A DNA stretch of 10,412 bases from Actinomycetes bacterium (lineage in GTDB: Bacteria > Actinomycetota > Acidimicrobiia > Acidimicrobiales > RAAP-2), in NCBI GenBank assembly GCA_021826655.1, contig JAKAZC010000067.1, positions 1-10,412 of the forward strand, read 5' to 3'. The notes beneath the pieces were generated by a model. The model saw only the letters and a program-made list of their open reading frames with translations, had not been told where the DNA came from and searched no databases. A program made the translations under genes and the position numbers. The stretch's first letter is position 1. Each line of letters starts with the position of its first letter. Below are positions 1,597 to 10,141 of the stretch, in pieces.

Positions 1597-1602
1597 TAGA
1601 CT
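1597..1602 (+). promoter_or_regulatory. Putative leaderless -10 box for the ParA operon
   Basis: TAGACT matches the actinobacterial TAnnnT -10 consensus and ends 6 bases before the GTG start at 1609, so transcription would begin at or next to the start codon. No Shine-Dalgarno sequence precedes that GTG. No convincing -35 is seen: the nearest candidate, TTCGGC at 1577, has a spacer of only 14. The same arrangement occurs before the Ppx gene at 9130. Confidence 0.55.
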
Positions 1603-1608
1603 TCCCCC

Positions 1609-2394
1609 GTGACCGACGTCCTGGCAGTGGCCAACCAGAAGGGCGGCGTGGCGAAGACCACGACTGTCCACTCGCTGGGTGTGGCGTCTGCCGAACTCGG
1701 GCGCCGCTCCCTGGTGGTCGACCTCGACCCCCAGGCATGCCTGACGTTCTCCCTCGGATTCGATCCCGACCGACTCGACGGTTCGCTGCACGACGTGTTC
1801 GTCCGGAGTGCCGGTGTCGCGGAAGTGACACTCGCCGTACCTGGCGTCCCCGGCCTCGACGTCCTCCCTGCGACGATCGACCTGGCCGGTTCAGAGGTCC
1901 ACCTCCTGACCCGCACCGGCCGCGAGCACGTGTTGGCCCGGGCGCTCGAGCCCGTGCTGGATCGTTACGACCTGATCCTGATCGACTGTCCCCCGTCCCT
2001 CGGCGTGCTCACCATCAACGGCCTGACTGCCGCGGGGTCGGTACTGATCCCGCTGCAGTGCGAGGCGCTGTCCCACCGCGGCGTGGGTCAGCTCCTCGAG
2101 ACCATCGAGGACGTGCGGGCCTTCGCCAACAGCGGTCTCACCGTGCGCGGGGTAATCGCCACCATGTACGACGACCGCACCAGGCACGCACGGCACATCT
2201 TCGAGGAAGTGGAGGACCGCTACCGGATCCCTGTACTGCAGCCCCCGGTCCGCAAGTCGATCCGCTTCGCCGAGGCGCCTGCACGTGGTAAGTCGATCCT
2301 CCAGCACGCCCCGAATTCCCCCGGGGCGGCGGCCTACCGCGCCCTTGCCGCCGCGTTGCTCGAACCCGGCGTGGTGGCGGGTTCGCCGAGCTGA
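1609..2394 (+). CDS. ParA/Soj-family ATPase (orphan, no ParB nearby)
   Basis: 261 residues, the usual size of a Soj-like ParA. It should be a nucleotide-dependent dimerising ATPase that binds DNA nonspecifically and positions a cargo. Seen: deviant Walker A KGGVAKTT at residues 11-18, with both the signature lysine K11 and the P-loop lysine K16; Walker A' VVDLDPQA at 36-43; Walker B LILIDCPPS at 122-130. Basic C-terminal patches TRHAR (191-195) and KSIRFAEAPARGKSI (216-230) fit DNA-binding surfaces of the family. The start is GTG at 1609, supported by the adjacent -10 box and by the first strand beginning at once (VLAVANQKGG). The stop overlaps the next ATG (TGATG), so the downstream gene is translationally coupled. 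No ParB gene and no parS-like site are seen in the window, so a role in chromosome segregation is not supported. Positioning of another cargo is more likely. Confidence 0.9.
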   Translation: MTDVLAVANQKGGVAKTTTVHSLGVASAELGRRSLVVDLDPQACLTFSLGFDPDRLDGSLHDVFVRSAGVAEVTLAVPGVPGLDVLPATIDLAGSEVHLLTRTGREHVLARALEPVLDRYDLILIDCPPSLGVLTINGLTAAGSVLIPLQCEALSHRGVGQLLETIEDVRAFANSGLTVRGVIATMYDDRTRHARHIFEEVEDRYRIPVLQPPVRKSIRFAEAPARGKSILQHAPNSPGAAAYRALAAALLEPGVVAGSPS

Positions 2395-2771
2395 TGGCCA
2401 CCGGGTCGGACCCTTTCGGTAGGCACGCACTGTTCTCGGCACCGGAGCGGGTCGAGGCCGAAGGCGATCCCCGGGCGACCGGAGCGACCCGAGCCGAGCC
2501 CGCCGGTAGGCGCGCACTGTTCACCGATCCCTCAGCCGGCGACGAGGCCGCACCAGCCCGGGCCACCAGGCGAGACGACTCCTCGGCCACGACTGGGGTC
2601 CTGGCGGTGACGTGCTCGACCTGTGGTGCGTCGGCGCGGGTCGGCATCGTCGAATTCCTCGCCCTGCAACTCCCGTTCGGGGCGTGGTTGCCTCGACGCA
2701 CGTTCGACCGGTGGATGACCTGCCCGGTCTGTCGGCGGCGCACCTGGACCAGCGTGTCCCTCGCCCGGTGA
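2394..2771 (+). CDS. Zinc-ribbon protein with duplicated GRxALF motif, possible ParA partner
   Basis: 125 residues, not a family I can name. It starts at an ATG sharing one base with the ParA stop codon and ends in a GTGA overlap with the DedA gene, so all three are likely made together. The N-terminal ~65 residues are rich in A, R, E, D and G and look disordered. They carry two copies of a short motif: GRHALFSAP at residues 9-17 and GRRALFTDP at 38-46. The C-terminal half contains C74-S-T-C77 and C110-P-V-C113, a typical zinc ribbon, with a hydrophobic stretch between (FLALQLPFGAWL, residues 88-99). Inference: a basic-hydrophobic short motif on a flexible tail followed by a folded domain resembles the layout of ParA-activating partners, whose N-terminal peptide stimulates ParA ATPase. 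The motif could instead bind something else. Real gene: fairly sure. Function: unknown. Confidence 0.75.
   Translation: MATGSDPFGRHALFSAPERVEAEGDPRATGATRAEPAGRRALFTDPSAGDEAAPARATRRDDSSATTGVLAVTCSTCGASARVGIVEFLALQLPFGAWLPRRTFDRWMTCPVCRRRTWTSVSLAR
2417..2522 (+). repeat. Pair of 19-bp direct repeats inside the zinc-ribbon gene
   Basis: CGGTAGGCACGCACTGTTC at 2417-2435 and CGGTAGGCGCGCACTGTTC at 2504-2522 match at 18 of 19 bases. They lie 87 bases (29 codons) apart in the same frame and encode the GRHALF and GRRALF motifs. The single difference changes His to Arg. Because synonymous positions are also conserved, the copies look recently duplicated, although codon bias in GC-rich DNA would also raise identity. 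Confidence 0.8.
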
Positions 2772-3583
2772 CCGTGCCCCTCCTGCTGGCCGCGGTGTCG
2801 AGCACGTCCAATCCCGGTGGCATCACCGGGTGGTTGCTGCACGTCAACGGCACCTGGGCCTACGCGGTGATCGGGTTCCTCGCGTTCGCCGAATCGGCGT
2901 TCATGGTCGGGTTCTTCTTCCCCGGCGAGACGGCGATCATCGTGGGTGGCGTGCTGGCCGGGCTGGGCCGCCTCAATCTGGGAGTGATCATCGTGGTCGT
3001 GGTCGTGGGCGCCATCAGCGGCGACTCGGTCGGGTTCGAGGTGGGGAAGCGGTCCGGTCCCTGGCTGCTGGAACATCGGCCGCTCAAAGGCAAGGCGGGC
3101 GTGACCTACACGCTCGGGTTGCTCGAGCGGTACGGGGGACCGGCGGTGTTCCTCGGTCGGTTCATCACATTCGTGCGCGTGGTCATCCCCGGGCTGGCGG
3201 GGATGAGCGGGCTCCGGTACCGGACCTTCCTGTTCTGGAACGTGCTCGGAGGGACCTGCTGGGGTGTGGGCTACACCCTCCTCGGGTACGTCGTCGGGAT
3301 CTCGATCGAGCACCTGCTGAGCCAGATCGGCCTGTGGTTCGCCGCGGTTGTGGGCGTCGCGCTCGGGGGATTCGCGGTGTTCGAGGTCCGACGGCGACGC
3401 CGGGAGCGTGCTCGGATCACCGTCGATCTCGCGGACATGGAGGACGGGGGTACGCCGACGACCGACGACCGACGCCCTGCTTCCGGGTCGGGCCCGGGAA
3501 TCGGTTCCGGCTCGAGGCCCGTCGCTGACATGGAGGGGGTCAATGACGAGGCACAGACTCCCGGATCCGATCCGGTCCCCTGA
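2768..3583 (+). CDS. DedA-family integral membrane protein
   Basis: 271 residues from GTG at 2768, whose GTGA overlaps the preceding stop. A longer reading from 2612 would only translate the neighbour out of frame. DedA/SNARE-associated (VTT) proteins are inner-membrane transporters or lipid scramblases linked to envelope integrity and proton-motive force. Seen: hydrophobic segments at about residues 31-50, 56-82, 125-147, 155-178 and 188-206; FAESAFMVGFFFPGE at 40-54; GDSVGFEVGKRSG at 85-97; and the core GRFITFVRVVIPGLAGMSG at 130-148. E42, R131 and R137 appear to match the essential acidic and arginine residues described for E. coli DedA proteins, with E54 in place of the Asp of the usual PGD (alignment from memory). 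After residue 206 come a basic stop-transfer run (RRRRRERAR) and a ~50-residue acidic, Gly/Ser/Pro-rich cytoplasmic tail beyond the usual family core. The link to ParA is only by operon. Confidence 0.88.
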   Translation: MTVPLLLAAVSSTSNPGGITGWLLHVNGTWAYAVIGFLAFAESAFMVGFFFPGETAIIVGGVLAGLGRLNLGVIIVVVVVGAISGDSVGFEVGKRSGPWLLEHRPLKGKAGVTYTLGLLERYGGPAVFLGRFITFVRVVIPGLAGMSGLRYRTFLFWNVLGGTCWGVGYTLLGYVVGISIEHLLSQIGLWFAAVVGVALGGFAVFEVRRRRRERARITVDLADMEDGGTPTTDDRRPASGSGPGIGSGSRPVADMEGVNDEAQTPGSDPVP

Positions 3584-8915: not shown

Positions 8916-8982
8916 GCTGGCTGCGGTGATGGCCAACCGTGCGTAGGTTGCACTGTCTGCGATGCCCTGAGACATCACGCCG

Positions 8983-9056
8983 TCGGGACGACAGGATTTG
9001 AACCTGCGACCTCCTGCTCCCAAAGCAGGCGCGCTACCAAGCTGCGCTACGTCCCG
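8983..9056 (-). tRNA. tRNA-Pro(UGG)
   Basis: Read on the minus strand, 74 bases fold as a cloverleaf. Acceptor CGGGACG pairs fully with CGTCCCG; the D-stem is GCGC/GCGC with loop AGCTTGGTA; anticodon stem CCTGC/GCAGG encloses loop TTTGGGA with anticodon TGG at 9020-9022; T-loop TTCAAAT sits on a GCAGG/CCTGT stem. The discriminator is A and CCA is not encoded, so the CCA-adding enzyme must complete it. It reads proline codon CCA, and CCG by wobble. It is transcribed convergently to the GGDEF-EAL gene and divergently from the Ppx gene. The 67 bases 8916-8982 show nothing beyond a weak 5-bp hairpin. Confidence 0.96.
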
Positions 9057-9142: not shown

Positions 9143-10141
9143 ATGCCCACCGTCCGCGTAGCCGTCTTCGACCTGGGCAGCAGCTCCTTCCACCTCATGG
9201 TGGTCGACGCCTCTCGCGACGGCCGGTTGGACCCGGTCCTCCGGCGGCGATCGTTCCTCCACCTCGGGACCGAGGTGGCCCGCACCGGCGGTGTCCCGGG
9301 GGACCGTTCGGCGCTGGCCGTGAGGACCGTCAGGCGCCTGCACGGGGCCGCCGAGGACGCCGGGGCGGACGTTGTCGTCGCCATGGCCACCGCCGCCCTG
9401 CGCGATGCCGACAACGGGGAGCGCTTGCTCGGCCGGCTGGAGCGGATCCTCGGGAGCCCCATCCACCTGCTCTCGGGTGAGGAGGAGGCCCGACTGTGCT
9501 TCCTCGGACAGCGGGCCGGCGTCTGGGTGGGTGACGTCCCGGTGCTGGGGCTCGATCTGGGTGGCGGCAGCCTCGAGGCCGGGATCGGGACGGTCGACGA
9601 CGTGTCCTCGGTGGCCAGTGTGGCGCTGGGCACGGCCCGCATACGGGGTGAGCTGGACACGGGAGACCGACTGTCGGCGGGGGAGCGGCGCGCGATCGGG
9701 GATCTCGCAGTGGAGCGGTCGGCACCCATCGTAGAGATGCTCGGCGCCAACCCGGGAGCGGGGGACCGGGTGGTCGCCAGTGGTGGCACCGTCCGGGCCC
9801 TCGCCCGCCTGGCCATGGGGCTCCACCGACCGCCACCGCGGGCGGGACGGTCGGGCGCCCCGTCGGTGAACCAGGTCGAGCTCCCGGCGGGTCAGCTCCA
9901 CGAGCTGGCCGACCGACTGTCCACGCTCGATCTCGATGCCCGGATGGCGCTCCCGGGAGTCCAGGCCCGCAGGGCACCCCTGTTGCCCATCGGAGCGGTG
10001 GTGTTCTCGACCCTGGTCGAGCACCTGGGCCTGCGAGGACTGGTGGTGAGCGAGTGGGGGCTCCGCGAAGGGGCGGTCTTCGACAGCCTGTCGCTCCCCG
10101 CCGCATCGGACGGACGGCGTCCGGCGGGTCCGTTGCCGTGA
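9143..10141 (+). CDS. ppx: Ppx/GppA-family phosphatase (exopolyphosphatase / pppGpp phosphohydrolase)
   Basis: 332 residues, the short two-domain form typical of actinobacterial Ppx1 proteins rather than the ~500-residue E. coli form. Members of this ASKHA-fold family remove terminal phosphate from polyphosphate or convert pppGpp to ppGpp; the sequence does not decide between these. Seen: first phosphate-binding loop VFDLGSSSFHLMV at residues 8-20; MATAALRDADNGE at 81-93; SGEEEARLCFLG at 111-122 with the catalytic-type acidic residues; second phosphate loop LDLGGGSLE at 137-145; the C-terminal PIGAVVFSTLVEHLGLRGLVVSEWGLREG near residues 285-315 that closes the second domain. ATG at 9143 begins right at the first strand and follows a leaderless -10 box. 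It stands alone on its strand, divergent from tRNA-Pro. It may adjust phosphate or alarmone pools under stress (family knowledge). Confidence 0.92.
   Translation: MPTVRVAVFDLGSSSFHLMVVDASRDGRLDPVLRRRSFLHLGTEVARTGGVPGDRSALAVRTVRRLHGAAEDAGADVVVAMATAALRDADNGERLLGRLERILGSPIHLLSGEEEARLCFLGQRAGVWVGDVPVLGLDLGGGSLEAGIGTVDDVSSVASVALGTARIRGELDTGDRLSAGERRAIGDLAVERSAPIVEMLGANPGAGDRVVASGGTVRALARLAMGLHRPPPRAGRSGAPSVNQVELPAGQLHELADRLSTLDLDARMALPGVQARRAPLLPIGAVVFSTLVEHLGLRGLVVSEWGLREGAVFDSLSLPAASDGRRPAGPLP

What the first reader, a model, noticed from the sequence alone, without database searches (positions are those of the whole stretch)
1609..3583. Orphan ParA - GRxALF zinc ribbon - DedA operon: candidate undescribed positioning system
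Three genes are joined by 1-base and 4-base overlaps behind one leaderless promoter. The ATPase has an intact deviant Walker A, but no ParB or parS is present. Known ParA systems without ParB use a cargo adaptor with a short activating peptide. The middle protein has two such short motifs and a zinc ribbon, and the third gene encodes a membrane protein. The unit could position a membrane or envelope cargo, or couple DedA activity to nucleoid position. The overlaps and motifs are seen; the functional link is inferred.
Basis: partly seen in the sequence, partly recalled or inferred. Interest (0 to 1): 0.72.

Follow-up and report, generated by a model that had tools for sequence, protein, structure and literature searches.

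The report
ParA positioning pair with zinc-ribbon partner
The window holds a bacterial ParA motor-like ATPase with a small zinc-binding partner protein that sits beside it in many Actinomycetota, and comparison of many genomes suggests this unnamed partner does the job that ParB does in chromosome segregation, for a cargo not yet known.

Summary
The genes and overlaps are real. ParA (1609-2394) overlaps a 125-aa two-motif zinc-ribbon protein (here MID, 2394-2771) by 1 base; MID overlaps a DedA/VTT gene (2768-3583) by 4. MID matches no Pfam or NCBIfam family above cut-off. The ParA-MID pair is no local curiosity: in 88 of 89 distinct MID loci a ParA ortholog lies directly upstream (the 89th is cut by a contig end), and in a phylum sample all 24 genomes with a credible MID also carry that ParA. 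DedA is a lineage-restricted addition (15 of 89). The 13 related genomes checked also hold a canonical ParA-ParB pair. In the ParA tree MID looks ancestral and lost several times. Three of five ParA positions conserved where MID is present but relaxed where it is absent are residues shown in Myxococcus ParA to bind ParB's activating peptide (D62, D91, I136). MID's (L)G-K/R-x-A-L-F/Y peptide resembles ParB's LGRGLxALI. Best reading: a second ParA system with MID as ParB-like activating adaptor. The DedA/envelope cargo idea is not supported beyond adjacency. Nothing biochemical is shown.

The parts
1597..1602 (+). TAGACT, -10-like element (TANNNT) 6 nt before the GTG start: possible leaderless promoter
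   Evidence: the same spacing recurs in related loci (e.g. L001, L002, L009, L016, L024, L035)
1609..2394 (+). ParA-type ATPase (261 aa), of a group distinct from the ParB-linked ParA; ortholog of PDB 4PFS (that this is the Rv3213c/MSMEG_1927 group is recalled, not tested)
1639..1659 (+). Deviant Walker A, KGGVAKT (residues 11-17)
1792..1794 (+). ParA D62, equivalent to M. xanthus ParA E82 (region through which ParB R13 acts)
   Evidence: PMC12462528
1879..1881 (+). ParA D91, equivalent to M. xanthus ParA D110 (same acidic region)
2014..2016 (+). ParA I136, equivalent to M. xanthus ParA L155 (hydrophobic ParB-peptide pocket)
2394..2771 (+). MID: 125-aa protein, disordered N-part with two G-[KR]-x-A-L-F motifs and a C-terminal zinc ribbon; proposed ParA partner
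2418..2438 (+). MID motif 1, GRHALFS (residues 9-15), behind D6-P7
2505..2525 (+). MID motif 2, GRRALFT (residues 38-44)
2601..2762 (+). Zinc ribbon (residues 70-123; Cys 74, 77, 110, 113) with a hydrophobic, cationic insert between the Cys pairs
2768..3583 (+). DedA/VTT membrane protein (271 aa), lineage-restricted third gene

Best explanation
ParA and MID form a two-protein, ParA-type positioning system separate from the chromosomal ParABS. Proposed working: ParA-ATP dimers bind the nucleoid; MID, bound through its zinc ribbon to a cargo, inserts its short (L)G-K/R-x-A-L-F/Y peptide(s) into the ParB-peptide pocket at the ParA dimer edge, the basic residue contacting the acidic D62/D91 patch and the hydrophobic residues contacting the Walker-B-proximal loop at I136; this triggers ATP hydrolysis and release, so the cargo follows the ParA gradient. 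Shown here: anatomy, near-obligate adjacency, single copy, a tree that fits ancestry and repeated loss, and pocket residues that track MID. Inferred: binding, activation, nucleoid binding. Unknown: the cargo.
For: Adjacency: ParA directly upstream of MID on the same strand in 88 of 89 distinct loci, ParA 52-91% identical to the window's. One MID match per hit genome: 17 of 17, 32 of 32 (one, G149 at E 7e-4, weak and not examined), 26 of 26 (one, G285/L133, spurious). Co-occurrence: the 24 credible MID genomes that both phylum samples cover (26 hits less G001, not in the second sample, and G285) are all among the 33 genomes with ParA at E <= 1e-70. Of 60 MID-negative genomes given to hold a clear ortholog (55-81% identity) and one (L200) a distant relative. 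Separate ParABS: a ParB-family match in 13 of 13 genomes (12 over cut-off; 11 of the 13 are MID genomes), each beside its own ParA, with ParB N-termini such as GLGRGLGALIP. Pocket: before any structure paper was read, one search listed ParA columns conserved in MID-carrying rows and relaxed in MID-less ones (62, 91, 94, 136, 170, 217). Mapped on PDB 8RAY, 62=E82, 91=D110, 136=L155, all mutated and tested in PMC12462528; 3 of 5 discriminating columns are such residues where 5 of 73 conserved columns are (P=0.0015, not corrected for phylogeny). Four further MID-less ParAs not used for that choice (L168, L169, L170, L172): of 70 conserved columns only 91 and 136 changed in 2 or more of the 4. Six more MID-less ParAs (L238, L241, L247, L253, L257, L259) have E/H at 62 and L/V at 136, while 23 of 23 MID-carrying loci of the same call have D62 and 22 of 23 I136 (these loci largely repeat genomes or lineages seen before). 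Tree: the MID label needs 7 changes against 50.4 in shuffles, with MID-less rows nested inside.
Against: No interaction, ATPase or localisation data. The pocket association rests on few independent losses: the phylogeny-aware pair test has 4-5 pairs and cannot reach 0.05. The columns do not agree in every set: D62 was kept in all 4 rows of the later test and in 11 of 54 MID-less rows; D91 is kept in 32 of 54 MID-less rows and in 5 of the 6. With the paper's vicinity residues added, P weakens to 0.029. L168 and L039 lack a detected MID yet keep D62 and I136; 5 of 82 MID-carrying rows lack I136, 2 lack D62, 4 lack D91. The MID motif is two residues shorter than ParB's, and two other pocket residues of M. 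xanthus (L187, L192) are mostly D and T/A in this ParA family, so binding cannot be identical. 9 of the 33 ParA genomes had no MID match, and Mycobacteriales and Propionibacteriales loci keep ParA without MID, so ParA has uses without MID.
Confidence: 0.7

Rival explanations
1. The three genes are one functional unit in which ParA and MID position DedA or an undecaprenyl-phosphate-linked envelope cargo.
For: 4-base MID-DedA overlap in the window; DedA follows MID in 15 of 89 distinct loci (13 at the stricter E-value); in L168 and L169 MID is absent but a DedA-like frame still follows ParA; the ribbon insert is hydrophobic, aromatic and cationic; in at least 10 of 22 Propionibacteriales-clade loci ParA is followed by an L,D-transpeptidase gene.
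Against: DedA was not found after most MID loci, nor after 8 of 22 in the family of G001 (one query, so divergent DedA could be missed, and L155 and L167 have under 1 kb downstream); genes after MID in six other loci are metabolic, transport or unassigned, and many next frames are convergent.
Confidence: 0.15
2. MID is a zinc-ribbon regulator or nucleic-acid-binding protein (RNA polymerase, ribosome or DNA) whose activity is switched by ParA; no cargo is moved.
For: Generic ribbon, weak sequence similarity to ribosomal protein eL42 (best E 0.034), mean net charge about +6 over the insert plus the 12 residues after the second Cys pair.
Against: Would not by itself explain why ParA's ParB-peptide pocket tracks MID; no informative fold match (best E 0.48).
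Confidence: 0.15
3. The G-K-x-A-L-F peptide is a docking motif for another hub (for example the replication clamp), and ParA is only a neighbour in the operon.
For: The A-L-F tail superficially resembles clamp-binding motifs (recalled, no call).
Against: The near-invariant G and basic residue are not clamp-motif features (recalled); ParA pocket covariation is not expected.
Confidence: 0.04
4. A relic of a plasmid or other mobile partition cassette.
For: ParA proteins are common on plasmids (general knowledge); the only PHROG hit of ParA is a ParA-like partition family.
Against: Single copy, no ParB or parS nearby, a tree in which the label is strongly clustered, and retained operon structure.
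Confidence: 0.03

Closest known systems
Chromosomal ParABS (ParA-ParB-parS)
   Same: ParA of the same superfamily (M. xanthus 8RAY, E 1.1e-52), deviant Walker A, part of the acidic and hydrophobic peptide pocket present; partner gene adjacent; basic plus hydrophobic short peptide in the partner's disordered N-part
   Different: No ParB or parS in the window; partner is a zinc ribbon, motif two residues shorter; LSxRG where canonical ParA has YYALEG after QCE, D168 and T/A173 in place of pocket leucines; coexists with a ParA-ParB pair in the 11 MID genomes checked
McdA-McdB and other ParA/MinD-ATPase positioning pairs (PMC10241942, passages read)
   Same: ParA-type ATPase plus dedicated partner whose disordered, basic N-terminus is thought to contact the ATPase while the rest binds cargo
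   Different: MID was not compared directly with McdB, PomX, MinE or other partners; it matches no curated family above cut-off; cargo unknown
PDB 4PFS, 5IHP, 5IF9 (and, from recall, Rv3213c / MSMEG_1927)
   Same: Same ParA group (4PFS E 3.2e-84 to the window ParA)
   Different: The mycobacterial loci examined lack MID; PDB entries are named cobyrinic acid a,c-diamide synthase; for Rv3213c/MSMEG_1927 PMC10482377 (passages read) gives only partial complementation of an E. coli minDE mutant, data not shown
DedA/VTT family (PRK10847, UptA)
   Same: VTT domain above Pfam cut-off
   Different: Below the NCBIfam equivalog cut-offs for PRK10847 and UptA; lineage-restricted neighbour

Membership tests
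ParABS chromosome segregation system | ParA ATPase with deviant Walker A | tested here: met
   KGGVAKT, AAA_31 172.7 bits
ParABS chromosome segregation system | Cognate ParB (CTPase/HTH) beside ParA | tested here: not met
   one search shows no ParB domain in the eight window proteins scanned; in the 13 related genomes checked ParB lies beside another ParA
ParABS chromosome segregation system | parS sites near the operon | tested here: not met
   0 matches in the window with up to 3 mismatches (consensus recalled)
ParA/MinD-type positioning system with a dedicated partner | Partner gene stably linked to the ATPase gene | tested here: met
   88 of 89 distinct loci; 24 of 24 MID genomes carry the ParA
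ParA/MinD-type positioning system with a dedicated partner | Partner carries a basic, disordered ATPase-contacting peptide | tested here: inconclusive
   Sequence and AF2 model fit and ParA pocket residues track MID; binding not shown
ParA/MinD-type positioning system with a dedicated partner | ATP-dependent binding to nucleoid or membrane; partner-stimulated ATPase | not testable with these tools
   Needs biochemistry
ParA/MinD-type positioning system with a dedicated partner | Identified cargo whose position depends on the pair | not testable with these tools
   No cargo identified; DedA not conserved beside MID
MinD (bacterial or archaeal) | Above the NCBIfam MinD cut-offs | tested here: not met
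   minD_bact 34.7 bits against 212.9; minD_arch 84 against 201.75
DedA/VTT membrane family (third gene) | VTT domain above Pfam gathering score | tested here: met
   57.5 bits against 33.9
UptA / DedA PRK10847 equivalogs | Above NCBIfam equivalog cut-off | tested here: not met
   88.2 against 236 (PRK10847); 34.7 and 28.9 against 300 and 250 (UptA)

The most novel reading that the evidence does not exclude
ParA-MID is an ancestral, phylum-wide second segregation or positioning machine of Actinomycetota in which a tiny zinc-ribbon protein took the place of ParB by a re-spaced version of the same activating peptide; its ribbon docks on the membrane or a membrane-linked cargo, so that nucleoid position is coupled to envelope growth, and mycobacteria and Propionibacteriales have lost or replaced the adaptor (in the latter perhaps by the cytosolic tail of an L,D-transpeptidase).
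Probability: 0.2. Interest if true: 0.85.

Novelty: new variant of a known kind. Interest (0 to 1): 0.62.

Why it matters
Many ParA-type ATPases are called orphans because their partner is unknown. Here a partner family without a recognised name is proposed for an ATPase group that also includes a protein with solved but apparently misnamed structures (4PFS and two others; from recall the mycobacterial Rv3213c type). Because some lineages lack the partner, three named ParA residues (D62, D91, I136) and a six-residue peptide give direct, cheap tests of how ParA systems change partners without crosstalk with ParABS in the same cell.

Full report
What is there. The window carries, on the + strand, a ParA ATPase (1609-2394), a 125-aa protein here called MID (2394-2771) and a DedA/VTT protein (2768-3583), joined by a 1-base and a 4-base overlap. 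Flanks are a beta-propeller-like protein upstream and, downstream, a convergent Kelch protein, an MBL-fold hydrolase, a GGDEF-EAL protein, a tRNA-Pro and a Ppx/GppA phosphatase. ParA starts at a GTG six bases after TAGACT, a spacing that fits a leaderless transcript and recurs in relatives.

MID. MID has no Pfam or NCBIfam match above cut-off and no PHROG match at E 0.01. A first search gave 167 homologs, a profile search 716 (the best 120 of each were listed). Alignment of 35 of the first list shows an invariant D-P-x-G start, a second G-K/R-x-A-L-F copy and four invariant Cys. In a more diverse set of 28 rows only M1, the four Cys, a Pro and a Trp are invariant; G38, L42 and S44 of the ribbon-proximal motif are near-invariant, and the first copy is absent from several rows. 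The shortest forms are 75-82 aa: one motif or motif variant plus the ribbon. Among 89 distinct loci 40 have one strict motif, 40 two or more, 9 near variants only. The segment between the Cys pairs is 31-34 residues in 87 of 89, hydrophobic and aromatic, and a Trp follows the second pair in 88 of 89. AF2 predicts a disordered N-part and a confident beta-beta-alpha-beta-beta ribbon.

Linkage. Searching with the MID profile instead gave 32 of 148 class genomes, 26 of 149 phylum genomes (one spurious) and 22 of 61 family genomes, lower bounds because of candidate caps. Pooled and deduplicated, 88 of 89 MID loci have ParA directly upstream; the exception starts at a contig edge. The 24 credible MID genomes that both phylum samples cover are all among the 33 ParA genomes; the other 9 ParA genomes had no MID match, and in 6 of them the fetched locus was checked and holds no MID beside ParA. 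Sixty MID-negative genomes were searched for ParA: 5 have a clear ortholog and one a distant relative; 4 have no match at 1e-40; most others show the canonical QCEYYALEG-type ParA, and for 5 loci my script could not assign the type. A deeper MID search in those 6 genomes found nothing credible (best E 0.106).

Two ParA systems. In 13 of 13 related genomes checked (11 with MID) a ParB-family gene lies beside a different, canonical ParA, and the tree separates the canonical rows from this ParA group with SH-aLRT 100. Within the group MID-carrying rows are at the base and MID-less rows (Mycobacteriales, Propionibacteriales, scattered others) are nested, so loss is the simpler account (quick tree, SH-aLRT only).

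Pocket evidence. Comparing 82 MID-carrying with the MID-less ParAs, without structural input, gave six columns conserved in the first and relaxed in the second: D62, D91, G94, I136, R170, S217. PMC12462528 (abstract, outline, passages and one section read) reports that in M. xanthus ParA the ParB peptide uses V116, L150, L152, L155, L187, L192 and that ParB R13 acts through the region of Y81, E82, D110, E117. By the printed alignment to 8RAY, D62 is E82, D91 is D110, G94 is G113 (near the peptide by NMR in that paper) and I136 is L155. With 8RAY in the alignment 5 columns pass and 3 are pocket residues, P 0.0015; adding the paper's vicinity residues gives P 0.029. Four further MID-less ParAs, not used for choosing, changed in at least two rows at only two of 70 conserved columns: 91 and 136; D62 was unchanged in all four. 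Six more MID-less ParAs differ at 62 and 136, but five of them keep D91. Over the main set D62, I136 and D91 are kept by 11, 1 and 32 of 54 MID-less rows against 80, 77 and 78 of 82 MID-carrying rows. Exceptions in both directions are given in the Against line. The pair test with 5 independent pairs goes the predicted way for 62 and 136 and almost never the other way, but cannot be significant. I read this as good but not conclusive evidence that MID occupies the ParB-peptide site.

Motif logic. ParB motifs in these genomes mostly read GLG[RK]GLxAL[IL]; M. xanthus uses L11, R13, L15, L18, I19 (PMC12462528). MID reads (L)G-[KR]-x-A-L-[FY]-S: a hydrophobic residue where L is present, a basic one, then a hydrophobic pair, two residues shorter. 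Group-wide changes in ParA at M. xanthus L187 (mostly D), L192 (T/A) and E176 (R) fit a pocket retuned for another peptide and insulated from ParB. This is inference.

DedA and cargo. DedA follows MID in 15 of 89 loci, 14 of them in the family of G001; in two relatives a DedA-like frame follows ParA with MID gone. Elsewhere MID ends the operon or precedes unrelated genes. DedA is therefore a possible client, not a core part. In at least 10 of 22 Propionibacteriales-clade loci the gene after ParA is a YkuD L,D-transpeptidase; in 8 of the 9 sequences printed a PRYGR stretch precedes the predicted membrane segment, a hint toward the envelope but no more.

Verdict. A real ParA-partner pair, not described in the papers that the searches named above listed, working most likely like other ParA positioning pairs but failing the ParABS membership test; cargo unknown.

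Noticed in passing
L020, L025, L028, L032, L045, L047, L059, L067, L078 (and L015), directly downstream of ParA: Propionibacteriales-clade orthologs of this ParA lack MID; in these ten loci a YkuD L,D-transpeptidase gene follows, with a PRYGR stretch before the membrane segment in eight of the nine printed.
   Followed up: partly
L168 from 2283; L169 from 2295: Two close relatives have ParA followed by a DedA-like frame with MID absent, so the ParA-DedA neighbourhood outlived MID.
   Followed up: partly
L200 from 2274: A distant relative of this ParA (QCEYLSLRG variant) lies just upstream of an FtsZ-like reading frame (FtsZ likeness judged by eye).
   Followed up: no
PDB 4PFS, 5IHP, 5IF9: Solved structures of close ParA orthologs are labelled cobyrinic acid a,c-diamide synthase, probably a misnomer.
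   Followed up: no
L011, L019, L022, L026, L058, L127-L132: Some MID relatives have an FDR[VIL]- or LDRV-type stretch near the N-terminus in place of the first GKRALF copy, perhaps a second kind of docking motif.
   Followed up: no
window 8982-9056 (-) and 9143-10141 (+): tRNA-Pro(TGG) next to a Ppx/GppA phosphatase gene; ordinary.
   Followed up: no
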